Positions 43,759 through 55,372 of a stretch of DNA of 64,000 nt are shown here, piece by piece. Made by a program: the position numbers and the translations under genes. Origin of the DNA: Nitrospira sp. KM1. GTDB lineage: Bacteria; Nitrospirota; Nitrospiria; Nitrospirales; Nitrospiraceae. The notes under the pieces were generated by a model that made no database searches, was not told the origin of the DNA, and was given only the letters and a program-made list of their open reading frames with translations. The stretch lies in assembly GCF_011405515.1 (NCBI RefSeq), contig NZ_AP022671.1, positions 1,550,001-1,614,000 of the forward strand, read 5' to 3'. How positions within the stretch are numbered: position 1 is the stretch's first letter; each line of letters begins with the position of its first letter.

Positions 43759-45531
43759 CTAAAGAGTTTTCCCCTTCTTCTTGTTCGCACGGCGCGTCAT
43801 CACCCACCCTTCCAGCAACACGACACCGAACGCGATCACCACTGGATAGATATAGGTTTCTCTGGGAATCGGCGGGTTCAGGAACGTGTAATAGAAAGCC
43901 GACACCGCCATCTTGCGGCCGGCATCCCCGTTATGTCCATCCCAGGCAAAAAACACGGTCGGAATATATTGGCCGACCTCGAAGAAGGTATCCTCGTCGT
44001 AGTCTTGATCCTTCTTATTCCCTAACGGACGTTGGATCATCACATACCAGCGGCCATTCTTCCATTCAGACTTCAGGACCTTGAGATTCTCTTCATAGGT
44101 ATCTCGCTCCTCAAAGTCCTTGTCCCAACCAGTTCCCTTGAACGCGCGAATGGATCCGTCAGCTTCCCATTTCACGATATCAACGGGAAACTGATCGTTA
44201 GTCCCAAAGAGATATCTGGGCTTAATCGGAGCAGGGAGATCCTTCCACTTCACCGGTGTTTCTATGGCAATTGCGTCGTTGTACACGGCGTAATTGTTCT
44301 GGTTCGATGCAATCGAACCCTCTTCACCGGTTTTCGGAGCCTGCTCTTTGACATCGATATTGACCGCAGTCGGGGCCCAAGGCAATTTGCCCTCTGCCAC
44401 GCTCTTGGTTCGATCGTCCCACTCAAGAAGGTAAACGACAGATTTGTCGTTGTAGAGAGACCTGACCCAAATATCATCGATCCGGTTGACAAAGTTGCGC
44501 GGCTTATGGGTGATTTGACCTCCCATCGCCACATAGCGTTTCGGGGCCTTCTGCCAAGCTTCGTTTTCGATATCGGCAGGGATCTCACCTTCTACGGGAT
44601 CAGACGGCACCACAAAGTTAATCTTCGGCTTGTCCGTCAACGGATCGATAGGAAGCGGATTGCCCTCAGGATCACGCTCACACAGCGAATTGACAAAGTT
44701 GGCAATGTCCCACCGCTCGTCGACCGTAGTATTGTCGGCAAACGACGGCATCGGGGTTCCGTTTACCCCAGTCGAAAATGTACGAAAGATATTCTTGACG
44801 TTGTACGGATCTTGTCGGCTTCCTCTGAAATTCCAGCACTTATGCCAATTGGCCGGCTGAATGGAAAAACCCCAGTCATCCTTCAGGTTGAAAGCATTTC
44901 CATCGCCCCGACCTTCAGTTCCATGACACTCGATACATTTCTTTTCGACAATTAACTCTGAACCGCGCTTCTTGCTTTCCTCGTTGGACGCTTTCGGCTT
45001 GAGATCGCCAAGCTGGAGGACAGTCTGTGTTTCTGACTGTTTATCCGTAAACTTTCTGTCCTTCACGAGTTGTGTCGTCACAAATGCCAATACTTGAAGC
45101 CGCTGTTCGTCCGTCAAAATGCCTTCCCAGGACGGCATGGCTGATCCCGGCAAACCATGTGTAACGGTCTCAAAGAGATCGTTCTGCCCTGCAGTAGGTT
45201 TTTTCGCATCGAAGAGCGGCAGTTCACCGCTGGCCGTATGCCGGATCTTGAATGTTCCCTGGTTGAAGTTGCGGGGCCGTGGCCAAAGACGATCGGCACC
45301 AGGGCCATCTCCGGCGCCATCGACTCCATGACACCAGACACATTTCGTAAAATACACGCGCTTTCCCGCCTCAATCATCTCCGCTGCAGGCTCAGGTGCC
45401 AGATCTCCCTTCTTGAATCCCTCAGGGAGACCATCCGCAAAAACGGAGTTCCCCACGCTACCCGAGAGCAGGATGGCTCCGAAGGCGCTTGCGGAAATCA
45501 CTCCTGCCTTCCGACTTAAACTGTTTCTCAT
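43759..45531 (-). CDS. Diheme cytochrome c fused to NxrC-like heme-b domain
   Basis: This 590-residue exported protein has a signal peptide (ISASAFGAILLSGSVGNSVF). It has two cytochrome c domains: CVWCH at 64-68, with Met candidate GSAMPSW, and CIECH at 199-203, with GTPMPSF. A C-terminal region of about 280 residues is related to the NxrC heme-b domain (RYVAMGGQITHKPRNFVNRI, YLFGTNDQFPVDIVKWEADG, WYVMIQRPLG, TVFFAWDGHNGDAGRKMAVS). A C-terminal helix (YPVVIAFGVVLLEGWVMTRR) anchors it. The position of the heme lysine in NxrC reads Gln here. It is the last gene of the bd-like oxidase operon and likely delivers electrons to the oxidase. Confidence 0.8.
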   Translation of the reverse strand: MRNSLSRKAGVISASAFGAILLSGSVGNSVFADGLPEGFKKGDLAPEPAAEMIEAGKRVYFTKCVWCHGVDGAGDGPGADRLWPRPRNFNQGTFKIRHTASGELPLFDAKKPTAGQNDLFETVTHGLPGSAMPSWEGILTDEQRLQVLAFVTTQLVKDRKFTDKQSETQTVLQLGDLKPKASNEESKKRGSELIVEKKCIECHGTEGRGDGNAFNLKDDWGFSIQPANWHKCWNFRGSRQDPYNVKNIFRTFSTGVNGTPMPSFADNTTVDERWDIANFVNSLCERDPEGNPLPIDPLTDKPKINFVVPSDPVEGEIPADIENEAWQKAPKRYVAMGGQITHKPRNFVNRIDDIWVRSLYNDKSVVYLLEWDDRTKSVAEGKLPWAPTAVNIDVKEQAPKTGEEGSIASNQNNYAVYNDAIAIETPVKWKDLPAPIKPRYLFGTNDQFPVDIVKWEADGSIRAFKGTGWDKDFEERDTYEENLKVLKSEWKNGRWYVMIQRPLGNKKDQDYDEDTFFEVGQYIPTVFFAWDGHNGDAGRKMAVSAFYYTFLNPPIPRETYIYPVVIAFGVVLLEGWVMTRRANKKKGKTL

Positions 45532-45579
45532 ATTTACCCTCATCTCATACATCAAGAGTTAGCAACGTATCTTAGGCAA

Positions 45580-46617
45580 TTAATCCCATGTGCGGGGGTA
45601 ATAGCCAGTATGCCAATATTCAAACAAAATGACCTTCCAGATCTCATCGACCGTCAGGTGTTGCTCCCACGGAGGCATAACGGACGCCCATGGGAAGCCC
45701 TCATTGGGCAAACCGATCCCACCTTTTGCCACGCGCCAGAAGATGAATGTTTCTTGAAGCTGGGCGATGGTTCCCGGATCGGTAAAATTGGCTGGAATAG
45801 GATTGAATGCAAAAGCATGCAGACCGCGACCGTTGAGATTGTCGCCGTGACAGAAGTGACAATTCTGGAAGAAAATTTCTCCACCTTCCCGGACATACTT
45901 CAGATAGCCTTGTGCATTCTGGTCCCAAGGATTGGCATTGGGCTTCATCAAGCGTCCCATGCCCTGCTCAACAATGTTGGCATTCGTATATTCCTGATCG
46001 TACTTACCCTCTGGATTAACCCGATAGGGATTCTGTGAAGTCTGAAGGGTGTACGTTTTACCATGCACCTTGGTACTGGCAGGTGGGGCAGGATGCACCG
46101 TTCGCAACTCGATCGGCTCTTCGGATTTCGGCTTCATCGCGTTGTACGAAAACCCTCCAATAAGAATGGGCAGAAGGACAAGATAGGCATAGCGCAGGAG
46201 CTTATTCGTACCACTTTGCGCATCGAGCACGTTCATAATCGGCTGCTTGAACTTCCTCCAATCATCCTCGTTAGCCGACATCCACATGAAGACGGCCACC
46301 AGCGAAACCGTTCCATACATGGCGCGGACGCTGAAGGGAATAGGAGGGTACACGCGGAACTTCAAATAGAGCAGGATGAAGGCCCAAAAGGCGATTGCCT
46401 GCCAAAATCGAGGAATGGGCATACCCATGGCGCTCATCATATAACTCAGCCCCGCAAAACCGGCGACGAATACGGCCAGTTCCGAGAGCATCTGCATCGG
46501 CATGTAGCCTTCGACCAAGCGCACGGTATTGGATGGGACGATATCAAAGATCATCCCGACCAGCAGTAGGAGCCCAATGACTCCTATCAGCGCGCCAACT
46601 GACATCAATGCTTTCAT
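45580..46617 (-). CDS. Membrane protein with C-terminal monoheme cytochrome c domain
   Basis: This 345-residue protein has about five membrane helices in residues 1-160 (ALMSVGALIGVIGLLLLVGM, LSELAVFVAGFAGLSYMMSA, LRYAYLVLLPILIGGFSYNA). A periplasmic domain follows with one heme site CHFCH at 253-257 and a Met candidate in ASVMPPWEQHLTVDEIWK. The layout is that of a membrane-bound electron carrier for the adjacent bd-like oxidase. The family has no firm name. It lies 48 bases before the diheme fusion gene. Confidence 0.8.
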   Translation of the reverse strand: MKALMSVGALIGVIGLLLLVGMIFDIVPSNTVRLVEGYMPMQMLSELAVFVAGFAGLSYMMSAMGMPIPRFWQAIAFWAFILLYLKFRVYPPIPFSVRAMYGTVSLVAVFMWMSANEDDWRKFKQPIMNVLDAQSGTNKLLRYAYLVLLPILIGGFSYNAMKPKSEEPIELRTVHPAPPASTKVHGKTYTLQTSQNPYRVNPEGKYDQEYTNANIVEQGMGRLMKPNANPWDQNAQGYLKYVREGGEIFFQNCHFCHGDNLNGRGLHAFAFNPIPANFTDPGTIAQLQETFIFWRVAKGGIGLPNEGFPWASVMPPWEQHLTVDEIWKVILFEYWHTGYYPRTWD

Positions 46618-46655: not shown

Positions 46656-47966
46656 TTACGAAATCTTCGGTGGCGGAGATCCCGCCTTCACCTGTGACAG
46701 ATAGTCAACAATTTTCTTCAAAGCGCCAGCGCTCAACTTTTGTCCAAACACCTTTGGCATCGTGTTGTCCGGGAATGGCTTCACGACGTAGGCGCTGGGA
46801 TCAATGACTGATTCCATAATGTATTCCGGCGTGCTCTTGGCTGTTCCCTTATACTCTTTGTCTTTGATGCGAAGCGGAGCGTTGGTCCCCTCCTCCAGTT
46901 TCGGACCGATGGTTCCGGTAGCACCTGGAATACCTGGAATGGTATGGCATGAGACACACTGTGCCTTGGCAAAAATCTGGTCGACAGGCTCAGAGCCATC
47001 GGCCATCAATGCGCTTGCGGCAGCCGGCTTGTCATCTGACATTTTAGGACGGTCAGCCTCTGGAATAAATTTTTCGTATGACTTTGTGATGTCTTCGAAA
47101 GACGGAGCATCCCGTCCCTCACGTACATATAGCCAGGTATCCACCGCAGCTAGTTCTGGAAGAGAGAGCGATATCGGTGGTTTGTGGATCTTAGGCATAG
47201 GGCTTTCCTTGTCATTGGTGCCCTTCACGCCGTACCCTGCAACGACATAGCAGCTTGGACAGGCATGTGACTCGGCGATATATTCCTGTCCGTTCTCAGC
47301 TGTGCCTGCACCAGGAAACGATTCCTTTTCTGCATAATCCCGCTTCGATGCATTTCCTTTCGAATACTTCGGATCTTCTAGACGTTCTTTACCAGCACGC
47401 TCAGGAAGCCCGAGCAGGTTTGGAGCACGCTCGCCCAACATACCAGCATGGAATGCGTGACAGAGCGGGCACTGGCCCTTTCCAATGGCTCCCTGCACCT
47501 TGTTCTGTCCTATGCCGCCAAAGATGATTTTTTCTCCCTCGTCTGCAAGCTGCTGAGCGCTCATCGAACTGAAATCAAGTTTTTCTTCTTTTGGAGGGAA
47601 ACCACCTTCGACTTGTGGAAGCCAATTACCGTATCCAGATAAGAAAGCGGCCACGAAAAACATGAAGCCGCCGATCTTGAGCAGTGCACTGAGGTTCGTA
47701 AAGTACAATGCCATCATGAAGGTGGTTGCCGTGATCATAACGAGCGAGACAGGCAACAACCGATTCTCTCCATAAAAATTATTGGCATAGTTCGCAATGG
47801 CAATAAACATTAGGAACGCTGCAACAATTCCGATCAAGGTCTTGAAGGTCGCCCGCTTCTTAGCGACCGGGTCACTAATGGATACCTGAAAGTAGATAAG
47901 TAAGCCCACCAGAATGGCTATGGCCATCCAGCCCATCGATAGGGCTTCGCTGATCAAATTACCCAC
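46656..47966 (-). CDS. Membrane-anchored cytochrome c with two heme sites and a CPSCY motif
   Basis: This 436-residue protein has four N-terminal membrane helices (MGWMAIAILVGLLIYFQVSI, FKTLIGIVAAFLMFIAIANY, VSLVMITATTFMMALYFTNL) and a periplasmic part. Heme sites are CPLCH (166-170) and CVSCH (337-341). A third motif, CPSCY (236-240), has Tyr in place of His and so should not bind heme in the usual way. Met candidates are ESPMPKIHKPPIS and NTMPKVFGQKL. The GTG start at 47966 has a strong AGGAGG site. It is part of the bd-like oxidase operon. Confidence 0.82.
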   Translation of the reverse strand: MGNLISEALSMGWMAIAILVGLLIYFQVSISDPVAKKRATFKTLIGIVAAFLMFIAIANYANNFYGENRLLPVSLVMITATTFMMALYFTNLSALLKIGGFMFFVAAFLSGYGNWLPQVEGGFPPKEEKLDFSSMSAQQLADEGEKIIFGGIGQNKVQGAIGKGQCPLCHAFHAGMLGERAPNLLGLPERAGKERLEDPKYSKGNASKRDYAEKESFPGAGTAENGQEYIAESHACPSCYVVAGYGVKGTNDKESPMPKIHKPPISLSLPELAAVDTWLYVREGRDAPSFEDITKSYEKFIPEADRPKMSDDKPAAASALMADGSEPVDQIFAKAQCVSCHTIPGIPGATGTIGPKLEEGTNAPLRIKDKEYKGTAKSTPEYIMESVIDPSAYVVKPFPDNTMPKVFGQKLSAGALKKIVDYLSQVKAGSPPPKIS

Positions 47967-48043: not shown

Positions 48044-49957
48044 TTAGTGGCTGCCTGCCGGCTGCGGCGCGCTGCCCGGAACTCCTGCTTTCGCTTCAAC
48101 TGGAACCTTCTTCACCGCCAGGCTGCCGAGCCAGAAGACGAAGAGGATGCTGATCCAAAAGAATAAAACATTGAATGAAATCATGTTGGCCGCAAAGCCA
48201 ACGGTATGGGTGTAGGCCCACGGCGAGTTGTCTCGCATGATCTCATTCACATGCCAGAAGAGACGGACAGATGAGCGGATATATCCCATCAATCCCATCA
48301 TCCAGGTGAACGCGGTGGCCAACATGATCAGAGCGTATTGCGAGCGGGCGGATATCTTGCCCCACTCGATCGGACCCATCTGCTTTGCTCCCTTCATCAT
48401 CACGCTATTCAGCGCAAACATGAAGAAAAGACAAGACAGGGTCGTCGCCACCTGAGGAACGGATAGTCCGACACGCACGTTGGCCGGGATGTAATAGCCG
48501 TAGACGGCGAGCCAGATAATGTTGATGTACGCAAAGAAGAAAAAGCAGCCCATGAAGATATTGCCAAACTTAGCCCACGATACGGTTGAAACTTTATTGC
48601 CTCGCATGTACCAGACGAAGCTCAAAACCGTAGTCGTAATAATCACGTTGATGCCGCCGTTTTTAGCGGACATGACACCGTAGTTACCGAGAACTGGGTG
48701 CTGCTGGCCACCCATGGCTTTCAACTCGGCAGGACTCATCACCATTGTGTGCGGGGTAATGAAGACCAGAAATCCGCACGTCAACAAGAACACCAAATAC
48801 TTGATGTACCGCTGATATTTCTCGGCACCTCGCATCCGGCCCATCGCTTGCCAGAGGTAGTAATTGGTGCTGAGGAACAGAATCCCGATCATGGTCGCCT
48901 GAATGATGAAGAGCCATGCCAGAAGTCCACCCATCAGCGTGATACCCATCTGCTGACGATACGCATACACTTCTCGCATCAGCCAATATCCGGCAAACGG
49001 CAATGGAATCAAGAACGCCACGCCGAGGGCCATCGCGATGTAACCCATCCAATCGTAATGTGCACGATCCTCTTCGGTCTTTGCAGCGAGAAATTTATAG
49101 GCTGCATATGCGGCAACGACGCCGCCGCCGAATGCCATATTCCCGAGAATTCTATGAACGTTGAGTGGATTCCAGAGCGCGGTGTGGATGACGTGCCAGA
49201 TGTTACCGAGATAACGTCCCTGCTCATCAACACCTGCGGGAGACATCATGAACCCAATCCAGGAATTCGCGAGGAACATGAGCAGGGTTCCGATGACGTT
49301 CAGGATGACCGACATGCTCAAGTGAATCCACTTGAGGAATCCCTCCTTCATCTTGTCCCAGCCGTAGTAGTAGATGTACAGCGTTCCGCTCTCGGCCACG
49401 AACATCAACGCATAGATGTGCATGACCGGCCGAAAGATGCTGGACAGGTAACCGAAGAAAGCCGGATAAAGAGTCAGGAAGGTAAATATGAGGATTCCAC
49501 CCAGAATCGCGGTAAGCGAGTATGCTGTCAGACTGATCTTGATAAAGTCATAGGCTAATTGATCATATCGCTTGGCCAGCGCCTTGTCCTTCGTGACCAC
49601 GCCCATGAACTCGATGACCATACAGAAAATCGGCACGGCGAGCACGAAGCTGCCGTAGTAGAGATGCTGCTGATTGGCAAACCAAAGAAGGACGCGGCTT
49701 TCAAAATTGTACCGAGGATAGTCCTTAGGGCCATCGGTCGTCTTCGGGGCTGGCGCACCAGCAACAATACCTTCCGTCTTGTAATAGACGTCCCGCCCTT
49801 TCTCAACCTTGTCTCCTTCCTTCTTCGCCGCGTCAGCAGAAGCTTCCTCACCGGCAGCCAGTGAAGGAAGCGACATGACCACGGGAAGCATGAGAAGGCT
49901 GATCATCGCGCACAGCGCCATGACCGAGAACACCTTCTTGCCTGTTACAGGACCCAT
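48044..49957 (-). CDS. Cytochrome bd-like oxidase subunit (CydA-related), copy 1
   Basis: This 637-residue protein has a signal or first helix, then about fourteen membrane segments. Residues after LLWFANQQHLYYGSFVLAVP resemble the start of CydA, with the His in the place of the CydA b595 ligand. MFVAESGTLYIYYYGWD, FLANSWIGFMMSPAGVDEQG and ALWNPLNVHR follow the CydA helix order. A conserved block KAMGGQQHPVLGNYGVMSAK is absent from ordinary CydA. Similar long proteins in Nitrospira have been proposed as the terminal oxidase. The start at 49957 has a strong AAGGAGGT site; two tiny membrane proteins lie just upstream. Confidence 0.8.
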   Translation of the reverse strand: MGPVTGKKVFSVMALCAMISLLMLPVVMSLPSLAAGEEASADAAKKEGDKVEKGRDVYYKTEGIVAGAPAPKTTDGPKDYPRYNFESRVLLWFANQQHLYYGSFVLAVPIFCMVIEFMGVVTKDKALAKRYDQLAYDFIKISLTAYSLTAILGGILIFTFLTLYPAFFGYLSSIFRPVMHIYALMFVAESGTLYIYYYGWDKMKEGFLKWIHLSMSVILNVIGTLLMFLANSWIGFMMSPAGVDEQGRYLGNIWHVIHTALWNPLNVHRILGNMAFGGGVVAAYAAYKFLAAKTEEDRAHYDWMGYIAMALGVAFLIPLPFAGYWLMREVYAYRQQMGITLMGGLLAWLFIIQATMIGILFLSTNYYLWQAMGRMRGAEKYQRYIKYLVFLLTCGFLVFITPHTMVMSPAELKAMGGQQHPVLGNYGVMSAKNGGINVIITTTVLSFVWYMRGNKVSTVSWAKFGNIFMGCFFFFAYINIIWLAVYGYYIPANVRVGLSVPQVATTLSCLFFMFALNSVMMKGAKQMGPIEWGKISARSQYALIMLATAFTWMMGLMGYIRSSVRLFWHVNEIMRDNSPWAYTHTVGFAANMISFNVLFFWISILFVFWLGSLAVKKVPVEAKAGVPGSAPQPAGSH

Positions 49958-50023
49958 GGGATACCTCCTTGATGCATTTCGAAAATTCGTAAAGATCGCT
50001 TCATTCCAACCGGGACAGCCCAA

Positions 50024-50146
50024 CTACTGGCGGAACAGATACCAATAGTCCAAGCCCTGCATGTCCATCAGGAAATGATCGACCATCGTAAAATAAGCTA
50101 CACAAATCACCGTCGAAATCACGATGTACACAATCGTCTGACCCAT
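50024..50146 (-). CDS. Tiny single-span membrane protein (40 aa), likely oxidase small subunit
   Basis: ATG at 50146 with a strong GAGGAGG site; the product MGQTIVYIVISTVICVAYFT is one membrane helix, followed by a short aromatic tail ending DYWYLFRQ. It is 66 bases upstream of the bd-like gene and surely in the same transcript. By analogy with CydX, which stabilises cytochrome bd, it is a candidate small subunit. No sequence likeness to CydX is claimed. Confidence 0.7.
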   Translation of the reverse strand: MGQTIVYIVISTVICVAYFTMVDHFLMDMQGLDYWYLFRQ

Positions 50147-50203
50147 TATCAAATCCTCCTCAACTCGCAGCAAAAAGTGTCAGCACTGCGCATGTGGCCC
50201 TTG

Positions 50204-50329
50204 TCAGCAGGGGCACTGAACGCCGGCGAACCAATAAAAGAACCACAATCCAACCGCACAGGTAATGTAGAAAATCATTTTTCCGATTTTTATTTTGAGG
50301 GGACTATCTGCCGTCGCCGTTGCCATCAT
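50204..50329 (-). CDS. Tiny single-span membrane protein (41 aa) with CPC tail
   Basis: Tandem ATGs at 50329 and 50326 follow an AAGGAGAC site. The product has a short basic N-terminus (MMATATADSPLKIKIGK), one helix (MIFYITCAVGLWFFYWFAGV) and ends QCPC. It is the first gene of the bd-like oxidase operon, 57 bases before the 40-residue protein. The CPC end could bind a metal or form a disulfide. Confidence 0.68.
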   Translation of the reverse strand: MMATATADSPLKIKIGKMIFYITCAVGLWFFYWFAGVQCPC

Positions 50330-50391: not shown

Positions 50392-50420
50392 TTGACACAC
50401 ATAGTTTCGTGTGTTATTCA
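50392..50420 (+). promoter_or_regulatory. Promoter-like site with ACACAC-N8-GTGTGT palindrome
   Basis: TTGACA at 50392-50397, 17 bases, then TATTCA (poor -10) at 50415-50420. The perfect inverted repeat ACACAC (50395-50400) and GTGTGT (50409-50414) fills the spacer. It lies between the minus-strand bd-like operon and the plus-strand 34-residue gene, so it could serve as a shared operator. Confidence 0.45.
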
Positions 50421-50456: not shown

Positions 50457-50561
50457 ATGACAAAAAACTCAAAAGTGTTCGACATTATAGTTTTGGCAGG
50501 TATGGTTGTCAATATCATTTTGGCCGTGTTTTTGATCCTCTACTACTTTGATTTCTTGTAG
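50457..50561 (+). CDS. Tiny single-span membrane protein (34 aa), plus strand
   Basis: ATG at 50457 preceded by CAGGGA. The product begins MTKNSKVFDIIVLAGMV, continues as one hydrophobic helix, and ends YYFDFL. It lies behind the promoter-like palindrome, is divergent from the bd-like operon, and stops 2 bases before the end of the convergent SUMF1-like gene. Too short for confident calling, but start context and helix support it. Confidence 0.5.
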   Translation: MTKNSKVFDIIVLAGMVVNIILAVFLILYYFDFL

Positions 50562-50563
50562 TT

Positions 50564-51460
50564 TTAGGTCTTTTCTCTCCTCTGTAAATTTCCATCGTTC
50601 GCACCAGATAGGGCACATCGAAAACCGATCGTCTCATCTCGGAAATCCTGCATCATTTTGCTCCGGCTGGTAATTCGCACATCCATACCGGCGGTCGTGT
50701 AGGCTCCTCCCCGTAGGACTCGATATGTCCCATATTCAGGACTCGACGGGTTACGTTCGGATGCGTCTTTGTAATAAGACTCTTGGTACCAATCGGCGAC
50801 CCATTCCATGACATTTCCGGCTCCGTCCATCACCCCGTATGGGCTTTTGTCAGACCCGAACGTCCCGACTGGAGCCGAAACGTCATAACCATCCTGCACC
50901 CTGGCCCAATTGGCTCCATTCTGCAATTCATGATTTCCCCAGGGCCACAGGCGACCATCCACCCCCCGCATCGCTTTTTCCCATTCTGCTTCGGTAGGCA
51001 GTCGTTTCCCCTTCCACTGACAATACTCCGATGCATCATCCCATGAAACGTAGACCGCTGGCTGGTTCGTCCCACGCATTCGGCCGATGCTCTTCGCGTA
51101 ACGCGAGGGTGGGCCGGCCTTTCGATGACCGGTTGCAGTCACGAATTGCTGGTATTGATAATTCGTCACCTCATATCGATCGATGGAAAATGTGTCGAGA
51201 TATATGGTGCGCTGAGGCTGCTCATCAAATCCTCCGTTGGTTGTGCCGCGAACAAACGGTCCAGCCGGTACTGTGATCATCTCTTCAGTGATAGGATTTT
51301 CCTCCTGCGGAGGGTCTAGAGTTACGTGAGGAGATTCAGCATTTTCAGCAGATTCTTCAAACGGGGTGAAGGTCGTCCCGCGAAGTATCCCCATAATAGG
51401 AAGGGCCGCGAATATCAGGACGACAAGAAGAAACGCAACTTTGAATTTGGTTTCAAGCAT
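50564..51460 (-). CDS. Membrane-anchored SUMF1/FGE-fold protein, paralog 1
   Basis: This 298-residue protein has one N-terminal helix (VAFLLVVLIFAALPIMGILR) and a formylglycine-generating-enzyme-like domain: MITVPAGPFVRGTTNGGFDE, IDRYEVTNYQYQQFV, GKRLPTEAEWEKAMRG, NVMEWVADWY, VLRGGAYTTA and IGFRCA. The paired active-site cysteines of true FGE are not visible, so sulfatase activation is unlikely; many family members are structural or have other roles. It is the last gene of the second bd-like operon. The ATG at 51460 lies 17 bases after its paralog. Confidence 0.82.
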   Translation of the reverse strand: MLETKFKVAFLLVVLIFAALPIMGILRGTTFTPFEESAENAESPHVTLDPPQEENPITEEMITVPAGPFVRGTTNGGFDEQPQRTIYLDTFSIDRYEVTNYQYQQFVTATGHRKAGPPSRYAKSIGRMRGTNQPAVYVSWDDASEYCQWKGKRLPTEAEWEKAMRGVDGRLWPWGNHELQNGANWARVQDGYDVSAPVGTFGSDKSPYGVMDGAGNVMEWVADWYQESYYKDASERNPSSPEYGTYRVLRGGAYTTAGMDVRITSRSKMMQDFRDETIGFRCALSGANDGNLQRREKT

Positions 51461-51477
51461 GTCGTGACACTGTATAG

Positions 51478-52395
51478 TTATGAGGCTGGGCCGCTTTCCC
51501 CAGAGTCCCCATCGCTCGCACATCGAATGCCTATCGTAATATCCGTGCGCCAATGCTTGGCGGCAAATCGCTTGGACAGTCTCGCATTGTGTTCTGTCTC
51601 CCGCCAAGACCCGCCACGAACGACTCGGAGATCCCCAGTATCCGGACCTTTTGGATCACGAAAGGGCGCTTTCTTATAATAGTTCTCATCGTAGGTGTCG
51701 TTAACCCATTCAGCCACATTCCCAGTCATGTCAAATAACCCATATGGGCTACGGCCTGCGTCGAATGAGCCGGGCGGCGCAAGATATTTGTAACCATCCT
51801 CGCTGCCGTCAACGTTTGCCGCCTTAGAAATGAATTTGTCTCCCCACGGATATTTTCTCCGTCCCTCACCACGTCCGGCTTTTTCCCATTCCGCCTCGCT
51901 CGGAAGCCGCTTGCCCGCCCACCGGCAATACGCAAATGCGTCATCCCAGGAGATGCTCATTGCGGCAAATTCGGGTTTCAGCAATTTTGACTGATCATCT
52001 TCGAAGACCTCAATTCTGGGCATGGGACGCTTCGTCATCTTGGCGAACCGTTCATATTCCTCCTGGGTCACTTCTTTTCGATCCATGTAGAATCCTTTTA
52101 CGAATACCTGATGCTCTGGCGATTCGTCAGGATCGCCATCCTGACTGCCCATCGTAAAGGGACCTTCCGGAATCTGCACCATCTCCCGGCCTTCATCCCC
52201 CATTCTTGTCTTGTACATGGAATAATCATGCGTCGAGGTCATACTCTCGACCGGCCGGCTTTCAGTTTTGACCGAAAGCGCCAGCTGCTTCATCTGTTTT
52301 GCCTTATACGACTCATAGACCAGCATCGCGATCATGAGCACAAATGAGGCGAAGACGAAAATTATCGAACCCACAAGCACGCCTTTGTTTTCCAT
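51478..52395 (-). CDS. Membrane-anchored SUMF1/FGE-fold protein, paralog 2
   Basis: This 305-residue protein has an N-terminal helix (VGSIIFVFASFVLMIAMLVY) and the same fold as the next gene: MVQIPEGPFTMGSQDGDPDE, MDRKEVTQEEYERFA, GKRLPSEAEWEKAGRG, NVAEWVNDTY, VVRGGSWRET and IGIRCA. FGE catalytic cysteines are again not seen. The pair arose by tandem duplication. Both should face the periplasm and may support assembly or stability of the bd-like complex encoded upstream. Confidence 0.84.
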   Translation of the reverse strand: MENKGVLVGSIIFVFASFVLMIAMLVYESYKAKQMKQLALSVKTESRPVESMTSTHDYSMYKTRMGDEGREMVQIPEGPFTMGSQDGDPDESPEHQVFVKGFYMDRKEVTQEEYERFAKMTKRPMPRIEVFEDDQSKLLKPEFAAMSISWDDAFAYCRWAGKRLPSEAEWEKAGRGEGRRKYPWGDKFISKAANVDGSEDGYKYLAPPGSFDAGRSPYGLFDMTGNVAEWVNDTYDENYYKKAPFRDPKGPDTGDLRVVRGGSWRETEHNARLSKRFAAKHWRTDITIGIRCASDGDSGESGPAS

Positions 52396-53500: not shown

Positions 53501-55372
53501 TCAGGCTTCCTGAGTCGGAACAGGGGTCAATGCCCGGCTGCGTTCTTCGATAAATTCTTCGCCAATCTCCGGCTGCTGCCCTCGCTGGCACATCCAGAAC
53601 ACGACAAACACCGAACCCCAGAACACGACCATGTTGAGCGTCACCATCTTTGCGGCAAACGCCAGATCAGGGGTAAAGGCCCATGGGGAAACGTCGGCCA
53701 TTACCTCATGAACGTGCCATGCGAGCCGTCCCGATGATCGGATATATCCCATCAGCCCCATCACCCACGTAAATGCTCCTGCGAGCCCGAAGAGCACGAC
53801 CATGCCGCGCACAGAAATCTTCCCCCATTGCACCGGGCCGTGAACAATGGATCCCTTGAGCATCGCGCGATTGATGAGGACGCTGCAGATGATAACCGTG
53901 AGCGTGGTGAATGCTTGCGGCGAGGAAAGACCGACCCGCAGATTCGCCGGCAGATAGAAACCATAGACGGACAACCACATCACGTTCAACAGGCCGACTG
54001 AAAAGAGCGTTCCAATGACGATATTTCCCGTTCGAACCCATGGAATCGTCATCGTCCGATTGGCACGTCGGTAATAGAGAAAACTCAACGTCGTAATCAA
54101 AATCATGATATTGATGGCGCCGTTCTTCGCTGACATGACACCATAATTACCCACCACCGGATGCTGTGCTCCCCCCATCGCCTTGACTTCGCTCCCCGAC
54201 ATGATGACCGTATGGGGCGTTAACCAAATAAAGAGGGCCAACGTCAGTGCGCCGAGCAAGAATTGATAATAGGGTTGATACCGCTCTCCGCCTTTAATGC
54301 GGGCCATGCTCTGCCAGATGTAATAGTTCACACCCAAGAGCAGCGCTCCGATCAAGAGGGCCTGCACAACAAAGAGCCACGTGAGCAGTCCGCCCATCAT
54401 CGTCATACCCAAGCTCTGACGATAAGCATAGACCGATCGCATGAGCCAGTATCCGGCAATCGGCATCGGTAACAATGCACAGACTGTCACAAACAAAAAG
54501 ATGTATCCCACCCAGTCGAAGTACGCCCGTTCACCTTCTGTCTTACTGGTGAAGAACCGGTAACAGGCATACGCCAATACCACCGCCCCACCCGACATGA
54601 TGTCCGCGAGGAAGCGGTGAACGTTCAGCGGATTCCAGAGCGCCGAATGGAGTAGGTGCCAGCCATTTCCCAAGAACCTCCCCTGCGCATCGACACCGGC
54701 GGGAGCCATCATGAATGCCGCCCAGGAATTCGCCAGCAAGAGAAGCGCAGTGCCGAAGATATTGGTAAGAATTCCAATCGCCGCATGGATCCATTTCAAA
54801 CCTGGCTCCGCCATGCGGTTCCAACTGTAATAGTAGAGGATGAGGAGAAATGCTTCCCCGTTGAATACGATTGCATAGGCCGGCATGAACGCTTTGAATG
54901 TTGCGCCCATATACGTCATGAAACTGGGATACAGCCAGATGAACATACAGAGCATCAGACTTCCCACCACCGCCGTCACCGACAGCGCAAGCAGCGCCAC
55001 CTTTGCCAAGTCTCTGGCAAGCCCATCGTACCGAAGCGACAAAGCCGGCTTCTTCGTCATGAGTCCCAAAAATTCCAACAGCGCGCAAAACAGCGGCAAC
55101 GCTAGCACAAATCCGGCAAAATACGTGTGCTGTTGCGTCACGAACCACACGAGGAGACGACTATCGAACAAACTGACACGCGGGTAGACGGTGTCCGAAG
55201 GTGAAGGGGCAGCCGGTCCTTGAGGAGAGCCTGGGGTTTTGAAATAGACATCGGTAGCGGGCTCAGCCGACACGACAGTTCCCACTCCAATACTTGCCGT
55301 GCCAATACTTATTACAACCGCACAGGCGAGCAGAAACTTCCTCACCCTCGTCCACGAACCAATTGGCGACAT
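53501..55372 (-). CDS. Cytochrome bd-like oxidase subunit (CydA-related), copy 2
   Basis: This 623-residue paralog of the protein at 48044-49957 has a signal helix (FLLACAVVISIGTASIGVGT) and about fourteen membrane segments. The CydA-like start LLVWFVTQQHTYFAGFVLAL, FNGEAFLLILYYYSWNRMAE, LLANSWAAFMMAPAGVDAQG, LWNPLNVHR and the block KAMGGAQHPVVGNYGVMSAK all match copy 1. The two copies are in different operons with different partners: this one has no adjacent cytochrome c gene. The ATG at 55372 lies 4 bases past the upstream gene. Confidence 0.82.
   Translation of the reverse strand: MSPIGSWTRVRKFLLACAVVISIGTASIGVGTVVSAEPATDVYFKTPGSPQGPAAPSPSDTVYPRVSLFDSRLLVWFVTQQHTYFAGFVLALPLFCALLEFLGLMTKKPALSLRYDGLARDLAKVALLALSVTAVVGSLMLCMFIWLYPSFMTYMGATFKAFMPAYAIVFNGEAFLLILYYYSWNRMAEPGLKWIHAAIGILTNIFGTALLLLANSWAAFMMAPAGVDAQGRFLGNGWHLLHSALWNPLNVHRFLADIMSGGAVVLAYACYRFFTSKTEGERAYFDWVGYIFLFVTVCALLPMPIAGYWLMRSVYAYRQSLGMTMMGGLLTWLFVVQALLIGALLLGVNYYIWQSMARIKGGERYQPYYQFLLGALTLALFIWLTPHTVIMSGSEVKAMGGAQHPVVGNYGVMSAKNGAINIMILITTLSFLYYRRANRTMTIPWVRTGNIVIGTLFSVGLLNVMWLSVYGFYLPANLRVGLSSPQAFTTLTVIICSVLINRAMLKGSIVHGPVQWGKISVRGMVVLFGLAGAFTWVMGLMGYIRSSGRLAWHVHEVMADVSPWAFTPDLAFAAKMVTLNMVVFWGSVFVVFWMCQRGQQPEIGEEFIEERSRALTPVPTQEA

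What the first reader, a model, noticed from the sequence alone, without database searches (positions are those of the whole stretch)
50024..50329. Two unannotated 40-residue membrane proteins at the head of the oxidase operon
Seen: two tiny frames, each with a strong ribosome site and one membrane helix, directly upstream of bd-like copy 1; one ends CPC, the other in aromatic residues. Known: CydX-type small proteins are needed for stable cytochrome bd. Inference: they are small subunits that gene callers would often miss. Copy 2 has no such frames next to it.
Basis: partly seen in the sequence, partly recalled or inferred. Interest (0 to 1): 0.6.

Follow-up and report, generated by a model that had tools for sequence, protein, structure and literature searches.

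The report
Three tiny membrane proteins beside bd-like oxidase
Next to a key respiratory gene cluster of the nitrite-oxidising bacterium Nitrospira lie three genes for membrane proteins of only 34-40 residues, conserved across the order and beyond; they are most likely overlooked small subunits of that respiratory complex, but no experiment has yet tested this.

Summary
Each occurs in 131 of 147 Nitrospirales genomes, in tandem directly before the bd-like gene. Both show selection on protein: third-position changes dominate, ORFs are 80-82% identical where the gaps between them are 46-51%, and ribosome sites are conserved. Neither matches Pfam, NCBIfam or PDB. In deeper Nitrospirota families D, A and B stand in one row before the oxidase gene. 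On the oxidase tree the bearers form one clade; two duplicated copies lack adjacent micro-genes. Anammox, Nitrospinota and NC10 relatives lack them. In most Nitrospirales a perfect sigma-70 promoter for the oxidase operon lies antisense inside ORF-D, constrained even at synonymous sites. Best reading: accessory single-helix subunits (N-in, C-out) of a bd-like/cytochrome c/NxrC-like membrane complex, CydX-like in kind but not CydX members. The subunit role is inferred, not shown. The partner has a CydA fold but lacks the GRQPW signature of canonical cytochrome bd.

The parts
50204..50326 (-). ORF-A, 40 aa, one helix, ends CPC (alternative ATG at 50329)
   Evidence: 131 of 147 genomes; coding-type substitutions; ribosome site
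50024..50146 (-). ORF-B, 40 aa, one helix, ends QGLDYWYLFRQ
   Evidence: 131 of 147 genomes; coding-type substitutions; ribosome site
50457..50561 (+). ORF-D, 34 aa, one helix; third conserved micro-gene, divergent here, collinear with A and B in deeper families
   Evidence: pN/pS 0.18
50484..50512 (-). Perfect sigma-70 promoter TTGACA-17-TATAAT of the A-B-oxidase operon, antisense inside ORF-D
   Evidence: 12 of 12 match; conserved in 89 of 102 distinct sequences, synonymous positions constrained; not tested experimentally
50392..50420 (+). Likely ORF-D promoter: TTGACA at 50392-50397, spacer 17, weak TATTCA
   Evidence: TTGACA about 65 bases upstream of D in most loci (89 of 105 have one within 110 bases); weaker evidence
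48044..49960 (-). bd-like oxidase copy 1 (OX1), 638 aa, CydA fold
   Evidence: PF01654; structure model Z 30-34 against cytochrome bd chains
46656..47966 (-). Membrane cytochrome c 1 of the same cluster
   Evidence: PF00034; constant synteny
45580..46617 (-). Membrane cytochrome c 2 of the same cluster
   Evidence: PF13442; constant synteny
43759..45540 (-). NxrC-like protein (cytochrome c domains plus ethylbenzene dehydrogenase domain), corresponds to alt_NxrC_2; exact start uncertain
   Evidence: PF09459, PF00034; cluster described in PMC6606698
50564..52395 (-). Two FGE-sulfatase-domain genes that stand upstream throughout the order
   Evidence: PF03781; constant synteny

Best explanation
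A, B and D are real, translated, single-helix membrane proteins. They are accessory subunits of the membrane complex built on bd-like copy 1, two membrane cytochromes c and an NxrC-like protein. Each probably spans the membrane once with its N-terminus in the cytoplasm, packs against the CydA-like oxidase core (as CydX, CydS and CydH do on CydA), and presents a conserved C-terminal tail to the periplasm, where the cytochrome c domains lie; there they would stabilise cofactor sites or the docking of the cytochromes. Shown here: conservation, coding selection, synteny, single origin with one oxidase clade. Inferred: topology (positive-inside), membership of the complex, stabilising role. In most Nitrospirales A and B are probably transcribed with the oxidase from a strong promoter inside ORF-D, while D is read from the opposite strand.
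For: A and B each in 131 of 147 genomes, always next to the oxidase in the loci read. Coding-type substitution patterns for A and B and D. Class-level relatives keep two tiny one-helix frames in the same place despite strong sequence divergence. Deeper families f14 and f19 have D-A-B-oxidase in one row on one strand. Bearers form one oxidase clade, 100/99 support, 3 label changes = one gain, two losses. D found almost only in genomes that hold this oxidase. The oxidase has the CydA fold, and one-helix subunits are known on CydA (PMC8951039). The cluster is among the 40 most transcribed gene sets in N. moscoviensis (PMC6606698).
Against: No direct evidence of translation or of physical association. 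The closest paralog (about 79% identical, beside nxrA) and copy 2 have no adjacent micro-genes, and homologous clusters in anammox, Nitrospinota and NC10 lack them, so such cores can exist without them. ORF-A also has orphan relatives away from any oxidase in four genomes. D is on the opposite strand in Nitrospiria, so it is not strictly co-transcribed there. Homology of A and B to the deepest families rests on position and short motifs.
Confidence: 0.68

Rival explanations
1. A, B and D are assembly or cofactor-insertion factors that act on the nascent oxidase or cytochromes and are not retained in the finished complex. ORF-A, with CPC or His at its periplasmic end, could hand over a metal or heme.
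For: Cys or His at the C-terminus of most A proteins; orphan A relatives away from oxidases; one copy of B and D against several oxidase paralogs.
Against: No similarity to known assembly factors; the helix cores and the B tail are conserved as one expects of packed interfaces; stable one-helix subunits are the commoner case on CydA folds.
Confidence: 0.2
2. The micro-proteins are membrane regulators rather than subunits. ORF-D in particular could be a small hydrophobic toxin-like or signalling peptide controlled by the overlapping antisense transcript of the operon (type I toxin-antitoxin-like layout).
For: D is short, hydrophobic and lies over the antisense operon promoter; predicted 5' overlap of the two transcripts.
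Against: In families f14 and f19 D is collinear with A, B and the oxidase; D is single-copy and nearly invariant through the order, unlike mobile type I toxins; the antisense promoter is missing in family f4 and outside the order while D is kept.
Confidence: 0.08
3. The frames are not translated; conservation reflects regulatory DNA or RNA.
For: The region holds a conserved promoter.
Against: Strong codon periodicity, conserved protein under divergent DNA, conserved starts and ribosome sites for A and B, poorly conserved gaps.
Confidence: 0.02

Closest known systems
CydX / CydS / AppX (one-helix subunit of cytochrome bd)
   Same: 30-40 residues, one helix, N-in/C-out (inferred here), own gene with the oxidase gene, partner with CydA fold; bearers group in the CydA tree; orphan copies exist (PMC4325964, PMC8951039)
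   Different: No Pfam match, no tryptophan at the start of the helix, encoded upstream and not after cydB, no CydB in the cluster, three proteins instead of one or two, bd-like partner without the GRQPW signature
CydY/CydH and CydZ (DUF2474)
   Same: Further one-helix proteins of bd oxidases; CydH is encoded away from the oxidase operon
   Different: No sequence match; no tryptophan at the helix start; different place and partner
bd-like_3 / alt_NxrC_2 cluster of Nitrospira moscoviensis (PMC6606698)
   Same: Same gene cluster: bd-like protein, two membrane cytochromes c, alt_NxrC_2, second bd-like copy close by
   Different: The passages read do not mention the micro-genes
Overlapping divergent promoters with antisense transcripts (excludon-like layout; from general knowledge)
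   Same: Two divergent genes whose 5' ends are predicted to overlap
   Different: Here the promoter of one unit lies within a 34-codon conserved gene; no transcript evidence

Membership tests
CydX (bd oxidase small subunit) | Match to the family profile | tested here: not met
   No Pfam family for A or B at E up to 1; no informative NCBIfam match for A, B or D
CydX (bd oxidase small subunit) | Conserved tryptophan at the N-terminal start of the helix (PMC4325964) | tested here: not met
   Alignments A2, A3, A4: no such Trp; the Trp residues of A lie in the second half of the helix
CydX (bd oxidase small subunit) | Encoded downstream of cydB in a cydAB operon | tested here: not met
   Encoded upstream of the bd-like gene; the cluster holds cytochromes c and an NxrC-like gene and no cydB
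CydX (bd oxidase small subunit) | One membrane helix, N-in/C-out | tested here: inconclusive
   One hydrophobic stretch each; basic residues before the helix suggest N-in; topology not measured
CydX (bd oxidase small subunit) | Present in the complex and required for its stability or activity | not testable with these tools
   Needs biochemistry
Canonical cytochrome bd subunit I (CydA), for the partner | CydA fold | tested here: met
   Model pLDDT 79; Z 30-34, about 350 residues, against ten CydA-type chains
Canonical cytochrome bd subunit I (CydA), for the partner | His ligands equivalent to E. coli H19 and H186 | tested here: met
   H99 and H269 are invariant in 38 homologs and align with the His of canonical CydA
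Canonical cytochrome bd subunit I (CydA), for the partner | GWxxxExGRQPW signature of quinol oxidases | tested here: not met
   GR.PW in 0 of 38 homologs, present in the canonical CydA of the same genome
Canonical cytochrome bd subunit I (CydA), for the partner | Met ligand equivalent to E. coli M393 | tested here: inconclusive
   Not aligned to Met, but the alignment is weak there
Protein-coding gene (A, B, D) | Selection on codon positions, conserved start and ribosome site | tested here: met
   (ribosome site tested for A and B; D's is weak)

The most novel reading that the evidence does not exclude
ORF-A carries a periplasmic metal or heme ligand site at its very C-terminus (CPC in Nitrospirales, HH or a terminal His in relatives), so that a 40-residue subunit completes a cofactor site of an unconventional bd-like complex that lacks the canonical signature, while the oxidase operon is driven by a promoter hidden in the antisense strand of a sister micro-gene.
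Probability: 0.15. Interest if true: 0.72.

Novelty: new variant of a known kind. Interest (0 to 1): 0.5.

Why it matters
The bd-like complexes of Nitrospira are thought central to nitrite oxidation, yet their subunit make-up and role (oxygen reduction, reverse electron flow or NXR docking) are unknown. Three conserved micro-subunits would have to be included in any expression or structure attempt, give specific handles (tags, antibodies, mass-spectrometry peptides) for isolating the complex, and extend the CydX principle to the unconventional bd-like branch. The promoter inside ORF-D is a clean case of DNA under protein and regulatory constraint at once.

Tried and rejected
CydX membership: no Pfam match, no tryptophan, wrong place. 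PDB sequence search for A and B: nothing up to E 5. Micro-proteins as fused parts of anammox/Nitrospinota oxidases: those carry an insertion of roughly 60-75 residues near OX1 residue 470, but its sequence does not resemble A, B or D by eye. Real losses as evidence: G116 and G068 lack A, B, D and oxidase copy 1 alike, but the surroundings suggest contig breaks or a missing locus (copy 2 is missing too in G068), so they are not counted. Metal ligand on ORF-A as a firm claim: rejected because three class-level A proteins have neither Cys nor His at the end. ORF-D conservation caused only by the embedded promoter: rejected, D stays conserved as protein in families without that promoter. B in L144: not found in the annotated gap, left open. 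Structure model of the small proteins linked to the oxidase: not run, as no coordinates are returned to judge contacts. Murali et al. on the bd superfamily is not held.

Full report
Observation. The minus strand below 50329 holds two short frames ahead of bd-like copy 1 (start 49960): A at 50204-50326 and B at 50024-50146. A has two ATGs; relatives keep only the second. Both have good ribosome sites, and over 95 loci 83 A and 93 B starts have one, against 15% of random ATGs. Copy 2 starts at 55372, five bases from the end of the gene before it, so it has no such frames.

Conservation. A and B were each found in 131 of 147 relatives, most at E below 1e-10. In the loci read the order is constant: two FGE-like genes, A, B, oxidase, two cytochromes c, NxrC-like. 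In the six closest genomes the ORFs are 82% and 80% identical while the gaps A-B and B-oxidase are 46% and 51%. Mismatches by codon position are 0.127/0.054/0.361 for A and 0.18/0.045/0.375 for B, against 0.52/0.51/0.54 in the A-B gap. Over 95 loci median pN/pS is 0.31 and 0.43, with near-saturated synonymous sites. These are plain counts, not corrected for relatedness. Sixteen genomes lack each; not all were inspected, and in those that were the locus itself is missing or cut.

A third micro-gene. The plus strand holds ORF-D, 50457-50561, between A and the 3' end of the FGE-like gene. It is 34 aa and nearly invariant through the order, with pN/pS 0.18 over 90 distinct sequences. A profile finds it in 119 of 295 Nitrospirota genomes, nearly all at 1e-10 or better; apart from a few marginal hits these are genomes that also hold the oxidase of this group.

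Depth. Class-level relatives, whose oxidase is 58-67% identical, keep two tiny one-helix frames at the same place with very different sequence (in L144 only A was found, in L146 only B because the contig ends). In families f14 and f19 (oxidase about 51-53%) all three, D, A, B, stand in a row on the oxidase strand; f20 shows A and B. Homology of D is supported by a direct match of window D (E<1e-3 in a small set of loci) to two of these. For A and B it rests on order, size and short motifs (B: D..LM..QGL; A: a glycine, then an aromatic cluster, then Cys or His at the end). Profiles built with these sequences match them by construction.

Limits of distribution. In anammox, Nitrospinota, NC10 and other Nitrospirota families the oxidase, mostly with its cytochromes, is present at 37-50% identity without micro-genes in front. 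B and D profiles find nothing convincing in those genomes, and A only marginal hits of 0.01 or worse. A tree of 62 oxidases puts the bearers in one well-supported clade (100/99), with 3 label changes, readable as one gain and two losses. The losses are the copy-2 clade and the paralog beside nxrA (nxrA neighbour). Genomes checked hold one copy of B and D although they hold several paralogs, so sharing in trans is possible.

Partner. The oxidase model (pLDDT 79) has the CydA fold: Z 30-34 over about 350 residues against cytochrome bd chains, then 20-23 against alternative complex III. It keeps two histidines matching CydA heme ligands but not the GRQPW signature. So 'bd-like' is right and 'cytochrome bd' is not. 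In N. moscoviensis this cluster (bd-like_3, two cytochromes c, alt_NxrC_2, with bd-like_4 close by) is among the 40 most transcribed genes and has been proposed to act in reverse electron flow or NXR anchoring (PMC6606698). That this window's cluster is the same one rests on gene content and order. The passages read there, and in PMC12342949, PMC9040806 and PMC8115632, do not mention the micro-genes; supplementary tables could not be read.

Regulation. A perfect sigma-70 consensus, TTGACA-17-TATAAT, lies at 50512-50484 on the minus strand, inside ORF-D. Both hexamers are conserved at 5/6 or better in 89 of 102 distinct sequences. Third codon positions within them (for example the rare ATA) are held at 0.87-0.94, while most other third positions lie lower, down to 0.36. 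Family f4 and the outgroups lack it while keeping D protein. Most D genes have their own TTGACA, typically about 65 bases upstream (89 of 105 loci have one within 110 bases). The two transcripts would then overlap at their 5' ends by about 50 bases; this is a prediction only.

Mechanism. Small hydrophobic subunits such as CydX and CydH pack on CydA and are needed for assembly or shape gas access (PMC8951039; PMC4325964). The same role is the simplest reading here: three N-in/C-out helices on a CydA-like core, with conserved tails (CPC or His; QGLDYWYLFR) on the periplasmic side facing the cytochrome c domains. Coding, conservation and linkage are shown. Membership of the complex, topology and stabilisation are inferred. 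Most A proteins aligned end in Cys or His (29 of the 31, but three known exceptions overall); a ligand role is open.

Verdict. A sound observation, one step incomplete (three genes, not two), with a plausible, untested interpretation: new small-subunit families of a known kind on an unconventional bd-like complex.

Noticed in passing
L061:2455-2604, L062:2204-2425, L063:4732-4944, L064:4138-4335: Orphan relatives of ORF-A, 49-73 aa with a longer N-terminus and the core WFFYWLNGIQCPC, away from any oxidase cluster in four genomes (G009, G016, G018, G017).
   Followed up: partly
L157:4203-6122 (own genome C1, about 2322200-2324120): A bd-like paralog about 79% identical to copy 1 stands directly upstream of an nxrA-like gene, with its own FGE-domain gene in front and no micro-genes.
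   Followed up: partly
L158 and L159, upstream of the nxrA-linked paralog: Different small hydrophobic frames (62 aa, and 46 aa if read from an internal Met) precede this paralog in two genomes; they do not resemble A, B or D and may be another small-protein family.
   Followed up: no
L248, L249, L251, L254, L247: Anammox, Nitrospinota and Poribacteria orthologs of the bd-like protein carry an insertion of roughly 60-75 residues near OX1 residue 470 that looks like extra membrane helices.
   Followed up: partly
window 50564-52395 and the same place in most loci: One or two FGE-sulfatase-domain genes always precede the cluster in Nitrospiria; their role with a respiratory complex is unexplained.
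   Followed up: no
L073, L074, L108-L115: In several genera ORF-B is longer, with an added N-terminal helix and a basic loop, consistent with its C-terminus being periplasmic.
   Followed up: partly
window 50392-50420: The likely ORF-D promoter overlaps a palindrome (about TTGACACN..NCGTGTGTT) conserved among close relatives, possibly a regulator site.
   Followed up: no
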